Below, piece by piece: positions 12,783 through 60,069 of a DNA stretch of 64,000 nt; within the stretch, counting starts at the first letter, position 1; every line of letters begins with the position of its first letter. A program made the translations under genes and the position numbers. The notes under the pieces are model-generated. The model saw only the letters and a list, made by a program, of their open reading frames with translations. It ran no database searches and was not told the origin of the DNA. Source of the DNA: a virus. Location of the stretch: positions 1-64,000 of the IMG/VR virus record IMGVR_UViG_3300031758_000043, one strand, 5' to 3'.

Positions 12783-13748
12783 ATGAGATTAGGATACTGT
12801 TGCATCAACCTTAGCCTTAGAGATAAAGGCATTACCGCTAACCGCGGCATGATCAAAAAGACTTGGCAGGAGCAGGGCATGGCCCGAGCCAGCGAGCTTG
12901 CGATCCTTAACTTGACCGATCTGTATGAGATCATCAAGTGGAATATCGAACATGATATCCAAGTCTATCGCATGTCTAGCGATATCTTTCCCTGGATGAG
13001 CGAGTATAGGTTTGAGGAATTACCAAAATACGAAGAGATATGCTCTCTCCTCAAGCGAATAGGCTCGCTAGCCATGCAAAACAATATACGTCTATCCTTT
13101 CATCCTGGCCAGTTTGACGTGCTTGCTTCTCCTAATCCTGACGTGGTTAGTAAGACCATTTATGACTTGGACCAACACGCTAGGATCATGGATCTCATGG
13201 GTCTACCTCAAGACTATCGTTCTCCCATCAACATTCACATCGGTGGATCGTATGGAGACAAGGAAAGCGCTTTGTCTAGGTTCTGTGAAAACTTCAAGCG
13301 ACTCGCCCCCTCCACGCAAGCTAGGCTGGTGGTTGAAAACGACGATAAAGCGAGCCAGTTCTCAGTCAAGGATCTCTACTATGGCGTCTACCGTGTAGTG
13401 GGTTGCCCAGTCACATTCGATCACCTACACCACAGGTTCTGTACAGGTGATCTCTCTGCCAGCGAGGCCGCTCACTTGGCTGCTTCTACCTGGCACGGCT
13501 TTACTCCCATGCAGCACTACTCCAGTTCCAAGTCACTGTATGAGGACTCTTCAGCGATCAACCGTTCCCATGCTGATTACGTCTATGATCTTATTCCAAG
13601 CTATGGTCTTGATGTAGACGTTGAGGTCGAAGCCAAAGCCAAGGACCTAGCCGTTTTAAAATATCGTCAAGATTTAGTATCTAATGACCCAGTATTACAA
13701 AACCCAATTTTATTCGAATTTGAAAGTTATGAAAATGTACAAGATTGA
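12783..13748 (+). CDS. uvsE: UV damage endonuclease (UvdE/UvsE family)
   Basis: A 321-residue TIM-barrel nuclease of the UVDE family, which nicks DNA 5' of UV photoproducts. Family features visible are the N-terminal 'MRLGYCCINLSL', 'VYRMSSDIFPW', 'RLSFHPGQFDVL', 'INIHIGGSYGDKE', 'LVVENDD' and 'VTFDHLHHRFC', which together supply the His/Glu/Asp metal ligands. Length fits the family (about 280-330). It is the first gene of a long rightward operon. Its last 20 bp overlap the next gene. T4 uses DenV for photoproducts, so this is a different solution to the same problem. Confidence 0.92.
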   Translation: MRLGYCCINLSLRDKGITANRGMIKKTWQEQGMARASELAILNLTDLYEIIKWNIEHDIQVYRMSSDIFPWMSEYRFEELPKYEEICSLLKRIGSLAMQNNIRLSFHPGQFDVLASPNPDVVSKTIYDLDQHARIMDLMGLPQDYRSPINIHIGGSYGDKESALSRFCENFKRLAPSTQARLVVENDDKASQFSVKDLYYGVYRVVGCPVTFDHLHHRFCTGDLSASEAAHLAASTWHGFTPMQHYSSSKSLYEDSSAINRSHADYVYDLIPSYGLDVDVEVEAKAKDLAVLKYRQDLVSNDPVLQNPILFEFESYENVQD

Positions 13749-16334: not shown

Positions 16335-18702
<2,368 letters not shown>

Positions 18703-33901: not shown

Positions 33902-34132
33902 ATGGATACAATCCCAGGCGGAGGTGGACAACCTCAATTAAACATTAACTTAGCTGATGCTCCATACATGGAGTGTGAAGAGTGTCAAGGAAAGCTTTTT
34001 GAAGAAAAGATGATGATCAAAAAGGTTTCTAAATTCATGACTGGCTCCGATCAGGACTCAATCGTCCCAATTCCAGTCATCGCTTGCGCTAAGTGTGGAC
34101 ACGTAAACGAATTATTTAAACCAAAAGTATGA
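33902..34132 (+). CDS. Small zinc-ribbon protein
   Basis: A 76-residue protein with two CxxC pairs, 'MECEECQGKLF' and 'IACAKCGHVN', spaced about 40 residues apart, a likely zinc ribbon. An N-terminal Gly/Pro-rich arm precedes it. It overlaps the polymerase gene start by 4 bp (ATGA), so it is translated with it. A nucleic-acid or protein adaptor role is possible; function is not known. Confidence 0.62.
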   Translation: MDTIPGGGGQPQLNINLADAPYMECEECQGKLFEEKMMIKKVSKFMTGSDQDSIVPIPVIACAKCGHVNELFKPKV

Positions 34133-35547
34133 TAGTAGGATCTGAAGTATTGAATGATGGAACTTTTCTAGTCTCTTATTATGATGAGAACGGTAAAACC
34201 GCTTTCATGAAGAAGAGGTTAGCTGACCATGAGCTCTATAACTGGGTCGAATCTTCTAATCCAACTGCTACTCGCAATTGGGATGGGAAGTTCGTCAAAC
34301 GTGGAATGAGCGCCGGCCAATACATCAATCAATTTAGGATCCAAGAACTAATTCGTGAAAAACTCACAGCCGAGGAGATCGCAGCAGTCTATAACCAAGA
34401 TAACTTTCCTAAAAAGACTTACCTCGATATCGAGATCAAGCTAATAGACGATAGCTTTCCAGAACCAGATAAAGCTCGAATGCCAGTAGGTCTTATCTCC
34501 TTTTGTAATGAGGATAACGTCACCTACATTCTTTCTATTCTTAACTCTGAAGATCAGCCTGACGGTTTGACTCAAGATCAGATAACTCAGATGGAAAAGG
34601 ACGTGAACGATTACTTTAGAAAGACCGTTCCTCTTAGAGAAGCCGACCGTGCACTATTTGAGCAAGATTTTAAGATCAAATACAAGTTCTTCAAGACTGA
34701 GGAAGAGTTAATGGAATTCTATTTTCATCGAATCATGCCGCATTTCTCATTTGTTACTGGATGGAATGTGACTGAATTTGACTGGAAGTATCTCATGAAT
34801 CGAGCCAAAAACATCAAAGTCGATGCAATGGCAACCATGCCGACTAAATCTACTTTCTCAAAGGTAAAGATACCAACTCACCTAGGAGTTCTCGATTACA
34901 TGCAAGTCTTTGAAAAGCTCAAGCCTTATAAAGTCGTTGAGAATTACAAGTTAGACTATATTGCAGAACTCGTCCTAGGTACCGCCAAATTGAAGCACGA
35001 TTACTCATCATTCATAGAGTTTCAAAAAGATACTTATCTCTTTACTATGTATAACGTGATTGACGTCATCCTAGTAAAACTAATTGAAGATAAGCTTTCA
35101 ATCCTAGATGTTGCCTTTGAGATGTCTAACGTTGCCCAAGTCGATGTGAATAAAGTATTTAGTCCAGTACACATTGCAGAGCTTCTAATGTGTCGTGAAT
35201 TTCTAAATAAGAATCTTAAAATGATGAAGCTCCCTTGGGGAGAAGAGGTACTCGATGCGACCTATGCTGGTGCATACGTTAAGGATCCTATTCCAGGTTA
35301 CTATAACGCGATCGCATGTTATGACTTCTCTTCAATGTATCCAAACATTCAGATTCAATTCAATATCTCACCAGACACTTATTTAGGCAAGATTGATAAA
35401 GTAAAGAAGGATGGAACCGAGATCCATACTAAAAACGATACCATGTTTTCAAGCAAATCAGACTCTGTTGCTCGAACAATACTGACTCGACTCTATGATG
35501 AAAGAATCAAGACACAAGGGGAGATCAAAAAACTTAAAAACTCATAA
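34129..35547 (+). CDS. 43: Family B DNA polymerase, N-terminal half (split gp43)
   Basis: A 472-residue protein matching the first half of T4 gp43. The proofreading exonuclease is intact: DIE (100-102, exo I), 'TGWNVTEFDWKYL' (N213/D218, exo II) and 'YNVID' (Y308/D312, exo III). Polymerase motif A is present as 'YDFSSMYPN' with D399. The protein then stops at residue 472, about 70 residues after motif A. Motif B (KxxxNxxYG) and motif C (DTD), which form the rest of the active site, are absent. T4 gp43 has 898 residues. No C-terminal half occurs in any frame downstream or elsewhere in the window. Split gp43 genes are known in some T4 relatives and in Rhodothermus phage RM378. Confidence 0.88.
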   Translation: MIVGSEVLNDGTFLVSYYDENGKTAFMKKRLADHELYNWVESSNPTATRNWDGKFVKRGMSAGQYINQFRIQELIREKLTAEEIAAVYNQDNFPKKTYLDIEIKLIDDSFPEPDKARMPVGLISFCNEDNVTYILSILNSEDQPDGLTQDQITQMEKDVNDYFRKTVPLREADRALFEQDFKIKYKFFKTEEELMEFYFHRIMPHFSFVTGWNVTEFDWKYLMNRAKNIKVDAMATMPTKSTFSKVKIPTHLGVLDYMQVFEKLKPYKVVENYKLDYIAELVLGTAKLKHDYSSFIEFQKDTYLFTMYNVIDVILVKLIEDKLSILDVAFEMSNVAQVDVNKVFSPVHIAELLMCREFLNKNLKMMKLPWGEEVLDATYAGAYVKDPIPGYYNAIACYDFSSMYPNIQIQFNISPDTYLGKIDKVKKDGTEIHTKNDTMFSSKSDSVARTILTRLYDERIKTQGEIKKLKNS

Positions 35548-35548
35548 A

Positions 35549-35776
35549 ATGGCAAAACCTATACTAGTAGTTGCATTTCCAGTACAAGTAGAGCTAGATG
35601 AAATATCTGCAGTAATCATACCTCTTGAACGTAGGCTCACTGATTACCACGTCATCGCATATCGAGCATCAGACATAACTGAATTAAATCTTAAAGTTCT
35701 CAATCCTGGAGAGTCTTCTGATCTTGATATTGAGGCTCTTAAAAAACAAATCAAAGAAAAAATCTTTAAACAATAA
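35549..35776 (+). CDS. Hypothetical protein after split polymerase
   Basis: A 75-residue protein from ATG 35549, one base after the polymerase half's stop codon. An upstream in-frame extension into the polymerase gene is possible but less likely. It begins MAKPILVVAFPVQVELDEIS and ends in a Lys-rich helix. No motif is recognised. It occupies the point where gp43 is interrupted, but shows no endonuclease motif. Confidence 0.6.
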   Translation: MAKPILVVAFPVQVELDEISAVIIPLERRLTDYHVIAYRASDITELNLKVLNPGESSDLDIEALKKQIKEKIFKQ

Positions 35777-35778
35777 AT

Positions 35779-36084
35779 ATGAACACACCAGAAAATTTTA
35801 TCAATTGGCTTGAGGGATTCCTCGATGCATGTAAAAACAAACCAACTGCTCCTCAAATCAAGGAGATCAGAAAGAAGATATCAGATATCAAACCCTCAAG
35901 TGGTGATACTTATCAAGCTCTTTGGAATCCAAATGTTGAACCCATGCCTATGAATAGTTTCCCAACTATAGGACTAGTTCAACCAGACAGTATTGAACCA
36001 AATAATGGCCCACTAGATGAAGCGTTTATGGCAGAAATTGAAAAAAGAAAGTCCGCTACTACAATGGACGAGCTTTTTGACTAA
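35779..36084 (+). CDS. Hypothetical protein with acidic C-terminal LFD
   Basis: A 101-residue protein with a helical N-terminal domain ('FINWLEGFLDACKNKPT') and a flexible Pro/Asn-rich middle. It ends 'TTMDELFD', an acidic-hydrophobic tail like those ending gp32 and the helicase in this phage. It starts 2 bp after the previous gene's stop. Function is unknown; the tail may bind a replisome partner. Confidence 0.6.
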   Translation: MNTPENFINWLEGFLDACKNKPTAPQIKEIRKKISDIKPSSGDTYQALWNPNVEPMPMNSFPTIGLVQPDSIEPNNGPLDEAFMAEIEKRKSATTMDELFD

Positions 36085-36100
36085 AAAAAATAAGAAGAAG

Positions 36101-36748
36101 ATGAATGAGGATAAGTTGATTTCTCTTATGGAGAACTTCACTGGTCAGAAATTCCAGTGGATCAAAACAAATAGACCTGAACTTTTAGGTAAGGTCGTGA
36201 CTTGTAGAAATATTGAGCCTAGAGGAGATCGCTTTTTTGCTCAATTTGATGATGGGTCATCAGTGGACACCGCTCAATTAAACTCTAATCTTTTAATGAT
36301 TAGCGGTGACATGCATCCTTTAACTAAAGCGGAAGTCGAGGCGATTTCAGGTCCACGTCGACCCACTACTTCTCCTGCCCAACAAAGACATTCTGCCGCA
36401 CAACCTGCATCACAACAGACTTCTCCACACATGGGAGCTCAGCCTGCGAATCAGCCAGTCTCTCATGCAGGCCCTAAAGCCAATATGTTTGACATGTTTA
36501 GTTCAGAAAACAGTCAGATCAGTCTAAGCCTTCTAGTAAAGCTTCCAGACAAGAAGCTATTAAAGCTTATGTACACTAACGCTGAAGACAAGGAGAAGTT
36601 TTTAGAAGAACTTTCTGAGTACGTTTTTCGTGAGATAAATAAAACTGTAGTGAAGGAAGCCGTTTCTTCTATAGTAGTTCCTCCTGGACAGACTAAAAGA
36701 GAACGCACTGGACCTACTATAACAGTGAACGAGATCCATGAAACTTGA
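36101..36748 (+). CDS. Hypothetical protein with Pro/Gln linker and MFDMF motif
   Basis: A 215-residue protein from ATG 36101; an upstream in-frame start inside the previous gene is unlikely. It has an SH3-like N-terminal domain ('LLGKVVTCRNIEPRGDRFFAQFDDG') and a linker rich in Pro, Gln, Ala and Ser. Next comes 'NMFDMFSSE', resembling the clamp-binding FDMF at the T4 gp43 C-terminus, then a helical C-terminal domain. It overlaps the next gene by 11 bp. It may be a replisome accessory protein, an inference from motif and place. Confidence 0.55.
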   Translation: MNEDKLISLMENFTGQKFQWIKTNRPELLGKVVTCRNIEPRGDRFFAQFDDGSSVDTAQLNSNLLMISGDMHPLTKAEVEAISGPRRPTTSPAQQRHSAAQPASQQTSPHMGAQPANQPVSHAGPKANMFDMFSSENSQISLSLLVKLPDKKLLKLMYTNAEDKEKFLEELSEYVFREINKTVVKEAVSSIVVPPGQTKRERTGPTITVNEIHET

Positions 36749-52960: not shown

Positions 52961-53755
52961 ATGCCAGAATTAGCAGAGATAAAGATAATGGCGGACTACA
53001 TCAATAAAGTCTGTCAGGAGAAGGATTTTACGAGCATCTCTTTCTCGGAGAGCGCACAGAGTAGAAAGTTAGGAATCACTCAACCCACTGACCTACAGAT
53101 ATTTAGGATTTCAGCTGAGTCTAGGGGCAAGGAGCTCATGCTCAGTCTCATTCAAGGAGGCGAAGTCTTTATGAAGATCTCCTTCTCAATGGGAATGTCG
53201 GGTCACTGGAGAGAGGTTCCTCCAGGATTTGAGCCTCCTAAGCACACGCATCTCCTATTTAATTACATAGGATTCGGATCCTTGTGCCTAGTTGACGTAC
53301 GTCGATTCGCCAGATGGAAAGTAGTTGAAGACTGGTCCCAAAACCGTGGGCCCTGTCCAGTACACGATTTTACTGAGTTCAAGCACAACATCCTAGGAAA
53401 CTTAGAGAAGCGAGAGTTTAATAAACCAATCCATCTTGTGCTCATGAATCAAAAGTATTTTAATGGAATAGGAAACTATCTCCGAGCCGAGATCCTCTTT
53501 CACGCCGATCAGGACCCTTTCATGGACGCTCGTACCGCTCTCTCAACAAATCCCGCAATCATTGAGCTTTGCGAAAGGCTTCCTAAAGAAGCATACGTTC
53601 TTGGAGGAGGTCAGCTAAAGGACTGGGAAAACCCATTTGAGGCCCCAGCTGGAGGATTTAATGAGTGGATGCAATGCTACGGTCGATCCAACCATATTGT
53701 GGACAAGAACGGTCGAACCTTATGGTATCATGATTCCCAAGTCAAAACCAGTTAG
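52961..53755 (+). CDS. Fpg/Nei-family DNA glycosylase with zincless finger
   Basis: A 264-residue base-excision glycosylase. The catalytic N-terminus MPELAE (P2, E3), K57 in 'SRGKEL' and the helix-two-turn-helix 'YFNGIGNYLRAEILF' are all present. The C-terminal zinc finger normally has four cysteines; here only one remains ('MQCYGRSNHIVDKNGRTLWY') while the DNA-contacting Arg of 'NGRT' is kept, so it is a zincless-finger type. It removes oxidised bases in known members. It begins a rightward operon with a DinG/XPD-like helicase. Confidence 0.88.
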   Translation: MPELAEIKIMADYINKVCQEKDFTSISFSESAQSRKLGITQPTDLQIFRISAESRGKELMLSLIQGGEVFMKISFSMGMSGHWREVPPGFEPPKHTHLLFNYIGFGSLCLVDVRRFARWKVVEDWSQNRGPCPVHDFTEFKHNILGNLEKREFNKPIHLVLMNQKYFNGIGNYLRAEILFHADQDPFMDARTALSTNPAIIELCERLPKEAYVLGGGQLKDWENPFEAPAGGFNEWMQCYGRSNHIVDKNGRTLWYHDSQVKTS

Positions 53756-53792: not shown

Positions 53793-53966
53793 ATGATTAA
53801 ACGATTGATTAGGAAGAGATTGACTCGAAGAGAAAAGATCATCACACAAGTATGTTGTATTCAGATCTTAGATGCAATGAAAAAGAGGGAAGCTGAGCTT
53901 AGTGATATCGAAAGAGAAGTCCTTCCTGAGATAGAGATGATAATCAAAAAACTCGAAGTAAAATAA
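53793..53966 (+). CDS. Small charged helical protein
   Basis: A 57-residue frame from ATG 53793 to TAA 53966, whose last base starts the helicase ATG (TAATG). It encodes MIKRLIRKRLTRREKIITQV and a Glu-rich helix. Coupling to the helicase supports it as real. Function is unknown. Confidence 0.5.
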   Translation: MIKRLIRKRLTRREKIITQVCCIQILDAMKKREAELSDIEREVLPEIEMIIKKLEVK

Positions 53967-55561
53967 TGAGTGAAATCACACTGGGCTTTGAGCCTCGCCC
54001 ACAACAGGTTCAGATCCTGGACTTTGTGAAAGAATCCATCAAGGATAAGAAAAAATTCATCATGATTGACGCTCCCACTGGAGTAGGCAAGTCATATGCG
54101 GCCATCATGATCGCGGACTGGTACCGAAAGGAAATCACCAAAAAGGCCAAGGTAGACATAGTCACAAATACTAAGATCTTACAGGATCAGTATATTAAAG
54201 ACTTTGAGTTTGCTGCAAACCTAAAGGGTAAGAACAATTATTGGTGTCGTCGTCAGGGTATGGGCTGCGGAGATGCACAGATCATAAATAAAGCAAACGA
54301 GAACAAGTGCGAGCCCTGTCCACACAGGATGGCCCAGTCCAAGTTTCTACGCAGCCCCTTGAGTCTCACTAACTTTCACCTCATCACTACCTACTCGATG
54401 TACTCGCCTGAGATGATGATCCAACGCAAGTCTAGGTTACTCATAATCGACGAGGCACACGCCTTTGAGGAGACCTATTGTGACTTCATCTCTTCAGTCT
54501 ATTCTGAACGTAGCATCAGGTTACTAGACGTCTGGAGAGACTGGATGGAAAAGGACTTAGATGGAATCACCTCTCTCAACGAGCTTTCAGAGTGGACTAG
54601 AACAGTCCTGGTTCCATTACTCGCACAGAAGGCTGAAGAGTTACTAAGCGAGGCTAAGGAAACTCGAATAAAGAAGAAAAAGATAGACTTGATCAAGAAA
54701 GCCGACCATGTCGACAAGTCGATGTGTAAGTATAACAGGTTCGTCAATGATAAGGAAAACTACAAGACTAACTGGACTTTTGAAAAGGACTTAGATCAGC
54801 ATGGCAAGACTAGAATCTTAGTCGAACCTATCTGGGGAAACATCTACCTAAAGGACATGTTTTGGAACCAGTACGATCATGTGATATTCATGTCAGGTAC
54901 GCTACTTGATAGGGAACTTATCTCATTCATCATGGGAGTCAATGAAGAAGAATCATCTTACATGGCTCTTCCATGTCCGTTCAAGGCTGAGAAGAGACCT
55001 GTGATCTACTTAAAATTCGGCAAGATGTCCTATTACCATAAGAAAGAGACCTTTGCTAGAGCAGTGCCGGTGATCTCTAGGATACTTGAGAAAAACCATG
55101 AGGTAAAGGGAATCATCCACACTGCAAACTACGAGTTTAGTAACTGGATCAAGGCCTCAATCAAGGACAAACGACTCATATTTCACGACTCGGCCACTAG
55201 AGAGAAGTCATTAGAGAATCACCTTACTTCCAAGTTAGAGACTGTCCTAGTCTCTCCGTCAATGATAAATGGAGTCGACTTGAAGGATGAACTCTCCCGT
55301 TTTCAGGTGATCCTAAAGGTTCCCTTTCCTAACCTAGTGAGCACCAAGATCAAGAAGAGGCTTGAATCCAAGCCAGAATGGTACAATTGGAAGACTCTAG
55401 TCGACCTCTTACAGGCATATGGTAGATCAATTAGAAACGACGAGGACTGGGCAGAAACGTTCATCTTAGACGAATGCTTCGATCAGGTGTTAAATAATAA
55501 AACGGTGCCCAAATATTTTTTAGAGGCACTAAAAATTAAAAAGCTAGGAAACAAGGCATGA
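53966..55561 (+). CDS. DinG/XPD-like superfamily 2 helicase
   Basis: A 531-residue helicase. Walker A 'APTGVGKS' is at 36-43 and the DEAH box at 162-165. Between them C94, C101, C115 and C118 ('WCRRQGMGCGD', 'KCEPCPHR') match the Fe-S cluster of XPD/DinG enzymes, which unwind 5'-3' and clear roadblocks such as R-loops. C-terminal motifs 'LVSPSMINGVDLK' and 'LQAYGRSIRNDED' (QxxGRxxR) close the second RecA domain. It overlaps the next gene by 4 bp. Confidence 0.85.
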   Translation: MSEITLGFEPRPQQVQILDFVKESIKDKKKFIMIDAPTGVGKSYAAIMIADWYRKEITKKAKVDIVTNTKILQDQYIKDFEFAANLKGKNNYWCRRQGMGCGDAQIINKANENKCEPCPHRMAQSKFLRSPLSLTNFHLITTYSMYSPEMMIQRKSRLLIIDEAHAFEETYCDFISSVYSERSIRLLDVWRDWMEKDLDGITSLNELSEWTRTVLVPLLAQKAEELLSEAKETRIKKKKIDLIKKADHVDKSMCKYNRFVNDKENYKTNWTFEKDLDQHGKTRILVEPIWGNIYLKDMFWNQYDHVIFMSGTLLDRELISFIMGVNEEESSYMALPCPFKAEKRPVIYLKFGKMSYYHKKETFARAVPVISRILEKNHEVKGIIHTANYEFSNWIKASIKDKRLIFHDSATREKSLENHLTSKLETVLVSPSMINGVDLKDELSRFQVILKVPFPNLVSTKIKKRLESKPEWYNWKTLVDLLQAYGRSIRNDEDWAETFILDECFDQVLNNKTVPKYFLEALKIKKLGNKA

Positions 55562-56733
55562 AATACTTAAGAATAAGTTATCCACAGCTTAGAACAGAGG
55601 TCTTGTCTGGGCTTACTATCTCAACTGCGCTGGTTCCTGAAGCAATCTCATTTGCTCTACTCATTGGAGTGTCTCCAACTGCTGGTATATGGGCAGCCTT
55701 CTTCATGGCATTATCCACTTCCCTTTTTGGAGGCAGGCCTGCCATAATAAGCGGTGCGACTGGCGCGACTGCAGTCATACTAGCGGCCCTTGTTTCTCTT
55801 CATGGAGAAGATAATCTATACCTTGCTGTGATTTTAGCTGGAGTGATCCAGTTAATCTTGTGGATTAGCGGAGGTTGGAAAGTATTCAAGACGGTTCCTA
55901 AGATCGTAATTTCCGGATTCCTAATTTCACTATCGATACTAATACTTCAAAGTCAATTCAAGTATTTTAAGATAGGTGGACTTTCGAGTATCCAACAGGT
56001 AATAATGGTAGGGATAGTTGTAGTATCAGCCGGCTCAATGTATGTTTCCAGTAAAAGATTCAAATTTCCTCCAGCAATCGCCGCAATATTGATGGGATCA
56101 GTTCTTAGTTCTTTCTTTGCTCTTCCTCTAATACAGGATCTTTCTGCTATATCAAATCGTTTACCTGAATTAGTCACTCCATCAGTTTCATTAGAGTCTT
56201 TATTACTAGTCTTGCCGTATTCATTAGGTATGGCAATTTCCGGTCTTACTGAATCTCTAATCGCAGTAGATGAAGTCTGTCATAAACTAGGAACCCCAAA
56301 GGGAAAAGATCCAAAGTCTAAAGAAACCTTTGCTCAAGGCATAGGTAATATAGTGAGCGGCTTTTTTACTTCAATTGGAGGCTGTGTCCTCGTAGGTCAG
56401 ACTAATTTAAACGTCGCAGCTGGCGCAAAATATCGAGTATCATCCCTAATTGCGAGCCTAGGTCTCTTATTGATCATACTCATTTTTGGAAAGTATATTC
56501 AGCTAATTCCTTTAGCTGGACTCATAGGAGTAATGATAATTGTAGTCTATGAAACTGGCGATTGGTCAAAACTTAAGGATAAAAATAGAGTAAATATAGC
56601 AACTCTTATCGTGACGATAGCCGCTTCGCTAATCACTCACAATCTTGCGGTAGGAGTCTTGTTTGGAAGTATCACATACTACGCAATAAAAAAGTTAGTA
56701 AAGAATAATGGCAAAGAAAAAGATCGAGGATAA
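55558..56733 (+). CDS. SulP-family anion transporter
   Basis: A 391-residue membrane protein with about 10-12 hydrophobic segments. The N-terminal 'RTEVLSGLTISTALVPEAI' and 'GVSPTAGIWAAFF...GGRPAIISGATGA' are the SulP (SLC26-like) signature, with 'GIGNIVSGFFTSIGGC' further on. Family members move sulfate, bicarbonate or other anions; the C-terminal STAS regulatory domain is absent. It overlaps the helicase by 4 bp and the topoisomerase gene by 26 bp, so it is part of a replication operon and not a stray insertion. I know of no common role for SulP in T4-like phages. Confidence 0.88.
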   Translation: MKYLRISYPQLRTEVLSGLTISTALVPEAISFALLIGVSPTAGIWAAFFMALSTSLFGGRPAIISGATGATAVILAALVSLHGEDNLYLAVILAGVIQLILWISGGWKVFKTVPKIVISGFLISLSILILQSQFKYFKIGGLSSIQQVIMVGIVVVSAGSMYVSSKRFKFPPAIAAILMGSVLSSFFALPLIQDLSAISNRLPELVTPSVSLESLLLVLPYSLGMAISGLTESLIAVDEVCHKLGTPKGKDPKSKETFAQGIGNIVSGFFTSIGGCVLVGQTNLNVAAGAKYRVSSLIASLGLLLIILIFGKYIQLIPLAGLIGVMIIVVYETGDWSKLKDKNRVNIATLIVTIAASLITHNLAVGVLFGSITYYAIKKLVKNNGKEKDRG

Positions 56734-58579
56734 GTATCAAAAGCTAACAGATACTGAACACGTTCTTCTTAGACCCTCAATGTATATCGGATCAGTTGCG
56801 ATCCACACCGGTGAGCAGCACTTATATGACGGTGAAAAGGTCTGGATAGAAGAAGTCAATTACAATCCAGGTTTCATAAAGATATTTGATGAGATCGTCT
56901 CAAACTCAGTTGACGAACACAGAAGAAATCCAAAACTAAACGAGATTAGAGTCACAATCGACCTAGATAAGGCCCATATCTCTATTTGGGACAACGGTGG
57001 AATCCCAGTTGAGAAACATAAGGTCCACAAGGAATGGATCCCAGAGATGATCTTCTCAAACCTTAAGGCAGGATCCAATTTTGATGACTCAGAGCAGCGC
57101 ACAGTCGCTGGAACCAATGGAGTAGGGTCGACTTTAACTAACATATTCAGTAAAAAGTTCACGGTTTCAACCTGTGACGGCAAGAATCGCTTCGATCAGG
57201 TCTTTACTGATAACATGGGTAAGAGGACTGTTGCCAAAGTATCCCCAGCCAAGCGAGGATTCACAGAAATCTCATTCTTTCCCGACCTAGAGCGTTTTAA
57301 GATGAGAAGGATCGACGAAAAGTCCTTTGGAATACTCTTTAAACGTTGTTTGGACCTAGTTGCATGTAACAATAAGCTTACCCTAAAGCTAACTAAGATT
57401 CTGGACGGAAAAAAGAGCGATTTTGTGCTTAAATTTAAGAGCTTTGAGGAATATATTGCTCTCTACTCGCAAGATTACTTCTTTGAGGAGACTAAAGATT
57501 GGAAAATAGGTTTTGCAAGGTCAGAAAACGGCTTTCAAAACGTAAGTTTCGTCAATTCTGTTCATACTAAGGACGGCGGAACTCACGTTGAGTACATAAC
57601 CAATCAGCTCATAGCCCAACTGAGGGAAATGATCAAGAAGAAACATAAAGTAGACGTAAAACCTAGCGATATTCGTAATCATCTCTATGTTTTTATCGAT
57701 TCTACGATAGTAAACTCATTTTTTAGCTCCCAGACCAAGGAAAAGCTCATCACTGAGGTCAAGGATTTCGGAACCAAGCATGAAGTTACTGATAAGTTAG
57801 CAAAATTAGTGTTTAAGTCCGAAATAATCCAATCTGTGCTAGACTGGGTGGAGAAAAAGGCCCTAGCTCAAGAAAGAGCTGAGCTTCGAAAGCTAAATAA
57901 GGACTTAGACAAGACAAAAATCCCAAAACTGATCGACGCACAGAAAAAAGGTGATCGTGGACCTTGTATTTTAGGAATCTACGAAGGATTAAGTGCAGTA
58001 TCAGCAGTTCGTAAGTTTAGGGACACTCAGACAATAGGTGCTTTCCCTCTAAAGGGTAAATTCATCAACGTAAGTGAGATGAAGAGCTCCGAAATCATTA
58101 AAAACGACGAAGCTGTGCAACTAATGGCCTCACTTGGACTAAAACTAGGAGAAGAGCCTAAAGGATTACGATACGGTCGCATCTATATCTATACTGATGC
58201 GGATCCAGACGGTAGCCACATCGCTGCAACCCTAATAAACTTCTTCGATCGCTTCTGGCCGGAGCTTTTTGAGCAAGGTAGGGTCTACAAGGTGATGACT
58301 CCTCTTGTAGTGGCTAAAAAGGGTAAAGATTCCCTAAACTTCTACACCAATGAGGAGTTTGACGCTTGGGAGAAGAAAACCAAGACCTCAGGTTGGGAGA
58401 TTGAGTACAAGAAGGGACTTGGAGCCCTTGAGGACGCAGAATACGAAGAAATAATAAAGAATCCTTACTTAGTACAGATAAAGAACGATAAGGATTACAA
58501 GGGATCGCTAGAATCTTGGTTTGGGAGAGATTCTCAACCTAGGAAGGAAAAGATCCTCGGAAATAACGAAGAGAGATGA
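56708..58579 (+). CDS. 39: DNA topoisomerase II large subunit (gp39/60)
   Basis: A 623-residue ATPase subunit. GHKL motifs are 'DEIVSNSVDEH' (N-box), 'SIWDNGGIP' and 'AGTNGVGSTLTN'. The TOPRIM part has 'YIYTDADPDGSHIAATLINFF' with the DPDGSHI signature. T4 splits this into gp39 and gp60; here it is one gene, as in most relatives. The stop overlaps the small membrane protein start (ATGA). It works with gp52 downstream in origin and fork topology. Confidence 0.93.
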   Translation: MAKKKIEDKYQKLTDTEHVLLRPSMYIGSVAIHTGEQHLYDGEKVWIEEVNYNPGFIKIFDEIVSNSVDEHRRNPKLNEIRVTIDLDKAHISIWDNGGIPVEKHKVHKEWIPEMIFSNLKAGSNFDDSEQRTVAGTNGVGSTLTNIFSKKFTVSTCDGKNRFDQVFTDNMGKRTVAKVSPAKRGFTEISFFPDLERFKMRRIDEKSFGILFKRCLDLVACNNKLTLKLTKILDGKKSDFVLKFKSFEEYIALYSQDYFFEETKDWKIGFARSENGFQNVSFVNSVHTKDGGTHVEYITNQLIAQLREMIKKKHKVDVKPSDIRNHLYVFIDSTIVNSFFSSQTKEKLITEVKDFGTKHEVTDKLAKLVFKSEIIQSVLDWVEKKALAQERAELRKLNKDLDKTKIPKLIDAQKKGDRGPCILGIYEGLSAVSAVRKFRDTQTIGAFPLKGKFINVSEMKSSEIIKNDEAVQLMASLGLKLGEEPKGLRYGRIYIYTDADPDGSHIAATLINFFDRFWPELFEQGRVYKVMTPLVVAKKGKDSLNFYTNEEFDAWEKKTKTSGWEIEYKKGLGALEDAEYEEIIKNPYLVQIKNDKDYKGSLESWFGRDSQPRKEKILGNNEER

Positions 58580-58695: not shown

Positions 58696-60069
58696 ATGGC
58701 AAAACCCATCATAAAAACAGTAACTGACTACTTAGACAACGATTATAAGGAATATGCAGTCTATGTTGTCGAAGAGAGAGCAATACCTTCAGTGATTGAC
58801 GGGTTCAAGCCCACTCAACGTAAGGTGATATTCATTGCCAATAAGGTATGGAGAAACGGGAGTGAGAAACCACTAAAGATATTTCAGTTAGCCGGTAGAG
58901 TCGCAGCAGACGCCTTTTATCACCATGGAGACGGATCCTTAAACTCTGCGATCATTGGAATGGCTCAAAGATTCAAAAACTCTATGCCTGTCCTAGAAGA
59001 TATTGGACAGTTCGGTTCTTTGCGATCGCCGGAGGCGGCCGCTCCTCGATATATCGCAACTAGATTACATAAGAACTTTAGACTTCTATACAAGGACTTT
59101 GAGCTTCTTGAATCTAGACACGAGGAGGGCAATGAGATCGAACCTAAATACTTTTTACCCATAATTCCTACTGTTCTCCTAAATGGAGGTAGCGGAATCG
59201 CAGTCGGCTTCTCAACCAACATCCTAAATAGAAACCCTTTGCACCTAATTGATGCCTGCTTAAAGTCGCTGGAAGGTAAAAAATATACTGAGCCTGCACC
59301 ATGGTATCAGGAATTTAGAGGAACATGTCAGCTATTAGATACTCCTGATGCTAAGTTCTCATGGCTATTTTCAGGCAAGTATGAGGTAAGGAACACATCC
59401 ACTGTCACGATCAGCGATCTTCCTCCTTCCGTTACCTATGAGAAGTTTGATCAATATCTAATAGATCTTGAGGATTCTCGTAGGATTGTGAGCTATGAAA
59501 ACAACTGTAAGTCGAACATAAGTTATACTATAAAGTTCAGAAGAGAGGACCTAAAAGCTCTTTCTGATTCTTCCAGGCTAAACCGATTCCTAAAGATGGA
59601 GGAGAAGCAGACTGAAAACTTCACAGTATTAGATGAGTTCGGCAAGCTTAAAGTATTTACTTCAGCCAGTGAGATCATTGAGTATTTCGTCAGCTTTAGG
59701 CTCTCTTTCTACGATAAGCGTAAGCAGTACCTAATAGACAAAGCAGAACAAGAATTATTAGTCCTTTCAAACAAGGCCAGGTTCATCAAGGATATTATTG
59801 ATGGCAAACTAAAGGTGAACAATGTTCCTCGTAAGGAGATAGTTCTGTATTTACAGACTGCTGATTTTGATGAGGTAAACGGATCGTATCAGTATCTACT
59901 TTCTCTTCCTATCTATACTCTTACTAAGGAGACGTATGAGGAATTGATCGAAGCTGAAAAGCAAAAAATTGAGGAAATCACTAGGCTAAAAGCGATGGAA
60001 CCTAAACAAATGTATAGGGAAGATTTACAAGAATTGAAAAAAGCCCTACAAAAGGAGTATAATAACTAA
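58696..60069 (+). CDS. 52: DNA topoisomerase II medium subunit gp52
   Basis: A 457-residue cleavage-rejoining subunit. 'RAIPSVIDGFKPTQRKV', 'YHHGDGSLNSAIIGMAQ' and 'GSLRSPEAAAPRYIATRL' match the type IIA breakage domain, with Y119 the catalytic tyrosine next to R118 (T4 gp52 Tyr116). A C-terminal coiled coil precedes the end. Length is close to T4 gp52 (442). It acts with the large subunit 117 bp upstream. Confidence 0.92.
   Translation: MAKPIIKTVTDYLDNDYKEYAVYVVEERAIPSVIDGFKPTQRKVIFIANKVWRNGSEKPLKIFQLAGRVAADAFYHHGDGSLNSAIIGMAQRFKNSMPVLEDIGQFGSLRSPEAAAPRYIATRLHKNFRLLYKDFELLESRHEEGNEIEPKYFLPIIPTVLLNGGSGIAVGFSTNILNRNPLHLIDACLKSLEGKKYTEPAPWYQEFRGTCQLLDTPDAKFSWLFSGKYEVRNTSTVTISDLPPSVTYEKFDQYLIDLEDSRRIVSYENNCKSNISYTIKFRREDLKALSDSSRLNRFLKMEEKQTENFTVLDEFGKLKVFTSASEIIEYFVSFRLSFYDKRKQYLIDKAEQELLVLSNKARFIKDIIDGKLKVNNVPRKEIVLYLQTADFDEVNGSYQYLLSLPIYTLTKETYEELIEAEKQKIEEITRLKAMEPKQMYREDLQELKKALQKEYNN

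What the first reader, a model, noticed from the sequence alone, without database searches (positions are those of the whole stretch)
55558..56733. SulP anion transporter inside a phage replication operon
A clear SulP-family permease, lacking the STAS domain, overlaps the DinG-like helicase gene on one side and topoisomerase on the other. Overlap on both sides shows it is integrated and maintained. Possible substrates are sulfate or bicarbonate. It may support host metabolism during infection, an auxiliary metabolic gene of an unusual type.
Basis: partly seen in the sequence, partly recalled or inferred. Interest (0 to 1): 0.75.

Follow-up and report, generated by a model that had tools for sequence, protein, structure and literature searches.

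The report
Phage-borne SulP transporter without STAS domain
Some large T4-like phages carry their own trimmed anion transporter, a distinct viral branch of the SulP family that has lost its usual regulatory domain and has been slotted into the phage topoisomerase region more than once, so the phage probably changes what its host can take up during infection.

Summary
Window 55558-56733 (+) is an intact 391-aa SulP permease (PF00916, 7.8e-37) with no STAS domain. It overlaps the DinG-like helicase by 4 nt and the topoisomerase large subunit by 26 nt, in a contig with a T4-type Gp23 capsid gene. A predicted structure (pLDDT 90) covers the whole transport fold and best matches SLC26Dg.

It belongs to a phage-only clade (100/100 support). 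Eleven other IMG/VR contigs carry members, including ~271-kb genomes. All complete members are 371-391 aa and STAS-less; their Bacteroidota and Verrucomicrobiota relatives, 31-40% identical, run past 500 aa, with STAS in the three scanned. PHROGs has no such family, and I found no paper on one.

The overlaps do not prove long maintenance. The gene sits in three different slots. The 35 nearest topoisomerase relatives lack it, and a 17/19-nt copy of the ancestral dinG tail at its 3' end marks an insertion. Purifying selection (dN/dS 0.10-0.27) argues against decay.

[quoted passage not shown] Best reading: an H+-coupled small-anion importer, perhaps for dicarboxylates, acting as a mobile auxiliary metabolic gene. 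The substrate is unproven.

The parts
55558..56733 (+). sulP: STAS-less SulP/SLC26 transporter, 391 aa
   Evidence: PF00916 7.8e-37; AF2 model pLDDT 90.3, Z 47.8/47.7 to SLC26Dg; phage-only clade 100/100
53966..55561 (+). DinG-like helicase gene upstream, overlaps sulP by 4 nt
   Evidence: PHROG 2488 4.1e-95, Helicase_C_2 1.5e-16
56708..58579 (+). T4-type topoisomerase II large subunit (topB), start overlaps sulP by 26 nt
   Evidence: PHROG 543 1.1e-194
58696..60069 (+). Topoisomerase II medium subunit (topA); the topB/topA gap is the slot used by sulP in the ~271-kb relatives
   Evidence: PHROG 551 1.3e-143
56687..56705 (+). Insertion scar: 19-nt remnant of the dinG 3' tail inside the sulP 3' end, 17/19 identical to the dinG end of relative L003; a diverged copy ends the window's own dinG
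   Evidence: local alignment score 15, reached by 0 of 1020 window stretches; the 3' ends of other phage sulP genes score 8-10; flanking 20-mers match 16/20, 0 of 300 random pairs
52961..53755 (+). Fpg/Nei-like DNA glycosylase upstream in the same cluster, for context
   Evidence: Fapy_DNA_glyco 1.8e-12

Best explanation
A phage-carried transporter gene of the SulP/SLC26 family, one member of a phage-only, STAS-less clade that passes among large T4-like phages and is inserted in gaps of their topoisomerase region. Shown here: family, complete 7+7 transport fold, loss of STAS, phage-only clade, three different slots, an insertion scar in the window, purifying selection. Inferred: it is expressed with the replication genes through the ATGA overlap, sits in the host inner membrane, and works by the SLC26 elevator movement as an H+-coupled symporter using Glu232 (TM8) and Glu28 (TM1). 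Its most likely cargo is a small carboxylate such as fumarate or another dicarboxylate, imported to feed host metabolism during phage replication. Because the STAS domain, on which transport by the studied relatives depends, is missing, the viral protein probably runs without host control through STAS.
For: PF00916 7.8e-37, no STAS; no STAS protein elsewhere in nine sulP-bearing phage records, although the same search rings in 10 of 14 control genomes. Complete model, pLDDT 90.3; best match SLC26Dg. Phage clade 100/100; complete members 371-391 aa, Bacteroidota and Verrucomicrobiota homologs over 500 aa, STAS confirmed in the three Bacteroidota homologs scanned. Three slots: dinG/topB in the window, topB/topA in the ~271-kb phages, nuclease/glycosyltransferase cluster in L094. 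dN/dS 0.10-0.27 in all 21 pairs. TM8 Glu, TM1 Glu and the TM10 Gly-Gln as in SLC26Dg; Glu at the TM8 position drives H+ coupling in AtSULTR4;1 (PMC8298490).
Against: No transport or expression data. Removing STAS from SLC26Dg leaves it transport-incompetent (PMC6497670), so the phage protein might not transport as its relative does. Phage-specific changes near the site (TM10 AMIGQS to VLVGQT, TM3 GAIAV to GATAV) could alter the cargo. The dinG/topB slot is seen in one contig only. Neighbours of the bacterial homologs are not consistent and give no substrate clue.
Confidence: 0.5

Rival explanations
1. A sulfate importer that supplies sulfur for protein synthesis during infection, as the family name suggests.
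For: Family name and Pfam model; H+-coupling glutamate shared with AtSULTR4;1.
Against: Of the four side chains whose alanine mutants lost almost all activity in AtSULTR4;1 (Gln112, Tyr116, Ser392, Arg393; PMC8298490), Gln112, Ser392 and Arg393 are Glu28, Gly280 and Gln281 here. No sulfur-assimilation gene among the window proteins scanned (not all ORFs were scanned). Some bacterial SulPs may move sulfate with other site residues, so this is not excluded.
Confidence: 0.15
2. A bicarbonate importer that supports carboxylation steps in nucleotide synthesis.
For: Best NCBIfam matches include BicA at 5e-34; the phage makes nucleotides (ribonucleotide reductase and thymidylate synthase), which needs bicarbonate.
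Against: BicA match of 117.7 bits is far under its cut-off of 880; BicA's TM8 Asp, TM1 PMAL and TM10 ATMGT differ; no carbonic anhydrase was recognised beside the bacterial homologs, by eye.
Confidence: 0.15
3. Not a nutrient importer: a leak, channel or membrane-level factor (ion or pH balance, exclusion of other phages, or part of surface modification).
For: STAS loss makes SLC26Dg transport-incompetent (PMC6497670); in L068 the gene lies beside an LpxH-like phosphoesterase and a family-2 glycosyltransferase, and in L094 beside glycosyltransferases and sugar-nucleotide genes.
Against: Coupling and binding-site positions are kept and dN/dS is low. The glycosyltransferase link is loose: L065 and L070 have sulP without those genes, L064 has them without sulP, and the window has none beside it.
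Confidence: 0.15
4. A passing host gene or an assembly chimera, with no lasting role.
For: Absent from the closest relatives; insertion scar.
Against: Eleven other contigs from about ten data sets carry the same clade, two of them closed by identical 126-127-nt ends; the nearest cellular homologs found are only about 40% identical; purifying selection.
Confidence: 0.05

Closest known systems
SLC26Dg (Deinococcus geothermalis SulP, PDB 5da0/5iof), H+-coupled fumarate transporter
   Same: 31-32% identity over the whole transport domain, same fold (Z 47.8/47.7), same residues at the TM1, TM8 and TM10 sites compared
   Different: SLC26Dg has a C-terminal STAS domain that its transport depends on (PMC6497670); the phage protein ends at the transport domain, and it is viral
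SLC26Dg-type SulP proteins of Bacteroidota, Verrucomicrobiota and Actinomycetota
   Same: 31-40% identity, shared GGC-x(3)-GQ[ST] TM10 motif
   Different: Bacteroidota and Verrucomicrobiota ones are 508 aa or longer (those complete), STAS confirmed in the three scanned; cellular; outside the phage clade. Two Nocardioides homologs of 408-411 aa are also short
BicA (PDB 6ki1), Na+/bicarbonate symporter
   Same: Same fold (Z 43.8)
   Different: Other TM1, TM8 and TM10 residues; NCBIfam equivalog cut-off not reached
AtSULTR4;1 (PDB 7lhv), H+/sulfate symporter
   Same: Same fold (Z 40.6) and the H+-coupling glutamate of TM8
   Different: Three of four sulfate-site side chains replaced
STAS-domain SulP-like protein of a Megaviridae environmental sample (A0A5J6VHZ5)
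   Same: Only other viral SulP-like structure found in BFVD (E 2.2e-4)
   Different: Giant virus of eukaryotes, 707 aa with STAS, 11% identity

Membership tests
SulP / SLC26 anion transporters | Sulfate_transp (PF00916) transport domain above curated cut-off | tested here: met
   127.4 bits against 23.2
SulP / SLC26 anion transporters | 7+7 inverted-repeat transport fold | tested here: met
   AF2 model pLDDT 90.3; Z 47.7, 2.8 A over 369 residues to 5iof_A
SulP / SLC26 anion transporters | C-terminal STAS domain (usual, not universal) | tested here: not met
   No STAS hit in the window protein or in the three other phage copies scanned; none elsewhere in nine phage records
SulP / SLC26 anion transporters | Full-length bacterial sulP subfamily model TIGR00815 cut-off | tested here: not met
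   121.4 bits against 380.45; the match covers only the transport part of the model
SLC26Dg-type H+-coupled carboxylate transporter | TM8 glutamate, TM1 glutamate and TM10 GQ motif | tested here: met
   Glu232, Glu28, Gly280-Gln281
SLC26Dg-type H+-coupled carboxylate transporter | H+-driven fumarate transport | not testable with these tools
   needs a transport assay
BicA bicarbonate transporter | NCBIfam equivalog NF050096 cut-off | tested here: not met
   117.7 bits against 880
BicA bicarbonate transporter | Aspartate at the Na+ position of TM8 | tested here: not met
   Glu232 instead of Asp
Plant-type H+/sulfate symporter (AtSULTR4;1) | Sulfate-site side chains Gln112, Tyr116, Ser392, Arg393 | tested here: not met
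   Glu28, Phe32, Gly280, Gln281; residues from PMC8298490
DauA C4-dicarboxylate transporter | NCBIfam equivalog NF008660 cut-off | tested here: not met
   91.8 bits against 614
Phage auxiliary metabolic gene | Metabolic gene lying inside a genuine phage genome, with relatives in other phages | tested here: met
   Gp23 capsid gene in the same contigs; eleven other contigs
Phage auxiliary metabolic gene | Changes host metabolism during infection | not testable with these tools
   needs infection experiments

The most novel reading that the evidence does not exclude
The phage clade is a transporter that has become independent of the STAS domain on which its cellular relatives depend: a constitutively active, control-free SulP that phages exchange as a cassette and use to force anion import into infected cells, possibly with a cargo not known for the family.
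Probability: 0.3. Interest if true: 0.75.

Novelty: new variant of a known kind. Interest (0 to 1): 0.5.

Why it matters
SulP/SLC26 transporters are found throughout life and in human disease, yet no bacteriophage branch appears in PHROGs, and none was seen in the BFVD search or in the papers searched. If this clade works without STAS, it is a natural test of an open question: what the STAS domain is for, and which changes let the transport domain run alone, since cutting STAS off SLC26Dg disables it (PMC6497670). It would also add anion import to the list of host functions that large phages bring with them.

Tried and rejected
(1) Hits in the 'phages' collection (Acinetobacter, Listeria, Staphylococcus and Enterococcus phage records) were set aside as probable host DNA: several are annotated ychM or lie in short unannotated fragments, at 26-41% identity; I did not check each. 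(2) Single-protein scans of viral and genome contigs found nothing; only the alignment of phage copies did. (3) Gene neighbours of the Bacteroidota homologs were read for a substrate hint (carbonic anhydrase, sulfur genes); nothing consistent. (4) Origin of the phage clade: the tree puts it weakly with SLC26Dg and Nocardioides (80/89); sister to Bacteroidota is not rejected (p-AU 0.239), sister to Verrucomicrobiota is disfavoured (p-AU 0.03). The host of origin stays open, and only three phyla were sampled for the tree. (5) A link with glycosyltransferases was considered and dropped as inconsistent. (6) STAS supplied by a separate protein: none found. (8) Plasmid SulPs are no closer (best 39.8%). 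(9) Foldseek/VIA lists also hold SLC4 and SLC23 relatives at lower Z, as expected from the shared fold.

Full report
What is there. The ORF at 55558-56733 (+) encodes a 391-aa SulP transporter (PF00916 7.8e-37). It overlaps the upstream DinG-like helicase by 4 nt (ATGA) and the downstream topoisomerase large subunit by 26 nt. The contig is a 78,257-base virus record with T4-type genes: Gp23 capsid, a gp32-like protein, a RecA/UvsX-like recombinase, DnaB-like helicase, SbcC-like protein, ribonucleotide reductase and thymidylate synthase. An AlphaFold2 model from an alignment of 29 sequences is confident (mean pLDDT 90.3, pTM 0.87) and covers the whole transport domain; its best solved match is SLC26Dg (Z 47.8/47.7, 31-32% identity).

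A phage-only clade. Searching with an alignment of the window gene and copies found beside topB gave eleven other viral contigs, four of them 270-271 kb; two of the contigs have identical 126-127-nt ends, as expected for closed genomes. In a maximum-likelihood tree the phage copies form one clade (100/100). The closest cellular homologs found are about 40% identical. All complete phage copies are 371-391 aa. The complete Bacteroidota and Verrucomicrobiota homologs of the same subfamily are 508 aa or longer, and the three Bacteroidota proteins scanned have STAS; two short Nocardioides homologs (408-411 aa) show that STAS-less forms also exist in cells. No STAS protein was found elsewhere in nine sulP-bearing phage records.

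Movement. The gene occupies different slots: dinG/topB in the window; topB/topA in the ~271-kb phages and in L101/L102; after a PD-(D/E)XK nuclease and before glycosyltransferases in L094. On the topB tree the presence of sulP needs at least six changes by parsimony; the window's 36-member clade holds it once. Some absences in the table may come from contigs that end before the slot (L063, L069), and two of the six changes could reflect that; L064, L072, L074 and L079 do span the slot and lack the gene. In relatives the dinG stop touches the topB start (TAATGG). In the window the last 19 nt or so of sulP before topB match the dinG tail of relatives at 17 of 19 positions (score 15; 0 of 1020 other window stretches reach it), whereas the sulP ends of other phages do not (scores 8-10). 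The window's own dinG keeps a diverged copy of the same tail, and the two flanks match 16/20 (0 of 300 random pairs). So sulP entered an existing dinG/topB junction. One copy (L103/L070) looks like a recombinant of two phage sulP types, with the switch near nucleotide 900-975 of the codon alignment.

Selection. Pairwise dN/dS (NG86) is 0.10-0.27 for all 21 pairs of phage copies. Synonymous sites are saturated in the distant pairs; the closest pairs (dS 0.2-0.5) give 0.11-0.27. The gene is kept as a protein in the clade. This says nothing on how long it has been in the window's own lineage. The gene's third-position G+C (0.31) is below its neighbours' (0.41-0.56), which also fits a later arrival.

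Mechanism. SULTR4;1 residues map onto the phage protein as Gln112-Glu28, Tyr116-Phe32, Glu347-Glu232, Ser392-Gly280, Arg393-Gln281. [quoted passage not shown] its equivalent is kept. Three of the four sulfate-site side chains are replaced. SLC26Dg has the same residues as the phage protein at the aligned TM1, TM8 and TM10 positions, and is described as an H+-coupled fumarate transporter (PMC8298490). BicA differs at all three sites. I therefore favour an H+-coupled small carboxylate importer. The cargo is inference from one characterised relative at about 32% identity. STAS removal makes SLC26Dg transport-incompetent without preventing dimers (PMC6497670), so a working STAS-less phage protein would need compensating changes; this is the most interesting testable point.

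Novelty. PHROGs has no matching family, BFVD only one SulP-like viral protein, from a giant virus, and full-text searches of open papers found no phage SulP. Subscription papers were not searched. The family is known; the phage clade without STAS is a new variant.

Limits. One contig for the dinG/topB slot; no reads, no expression data, host unknown.

Noticed in passing
L026, L059, L070: topA after codon 79: The topoisomerase medium subunit gene is interrupted at the same codon (about 79) in three phages by inserts of roughly 1.4 kb; the one read in L059 holds an ORF that looks endonuclease-like. Likely homing elements.
   Followed up: partly
L009: 3517-6769: dinG is interrupted after about codon 39 by roughly 1.7 kb in one relative.
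   Followed up: no
window 34129-36748: The family-B DNA polymerase ORF stops at 472 aa with only part of the polymerase domain, followed by several short ORFs; possibly a split gene.
   Followed up: no
window 17095-18702: The phage encodes a full-length Cpn60-type chaperonin (PF00118, 2e-63).
   Followed up: no
window 12783-13748: UV-damage endonuclease UvdE (2.3e-57), and an Fpg/Nei-like glycosylase at 52961-53755: phage-borne DNA repair genes.
   Followed up: no
L103/L070 sulP: This sulP resembles L099 over most of its length and L095 at the 3' end, so it seems a phage-phage recombinant inside the gene.
   Followed up: partly
L064, L068, L070, L079: between topB and topA: The slot holds varying sets of genes: LpxH-like phosphoesterase, family-2 glycosyltransferase, two L,D-transpeptidase-like proteins, a conserved ORF of about 125 aa.
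   Followed up: partly
L101: 3202-3636 and 8808-9764: Ribose-5-phosphate isomerase B and ribose-phosphate pyrophosphokinase genes flank the topB-sulP-topA cluster of this phage.
   Followed up: no
phages collection, e.g. CAKLQH020000012.1, OR849862.1: Several records labelled as phage carry what look like host SulP genes (ychM), probably bacterial contamination.
   Followed up: no
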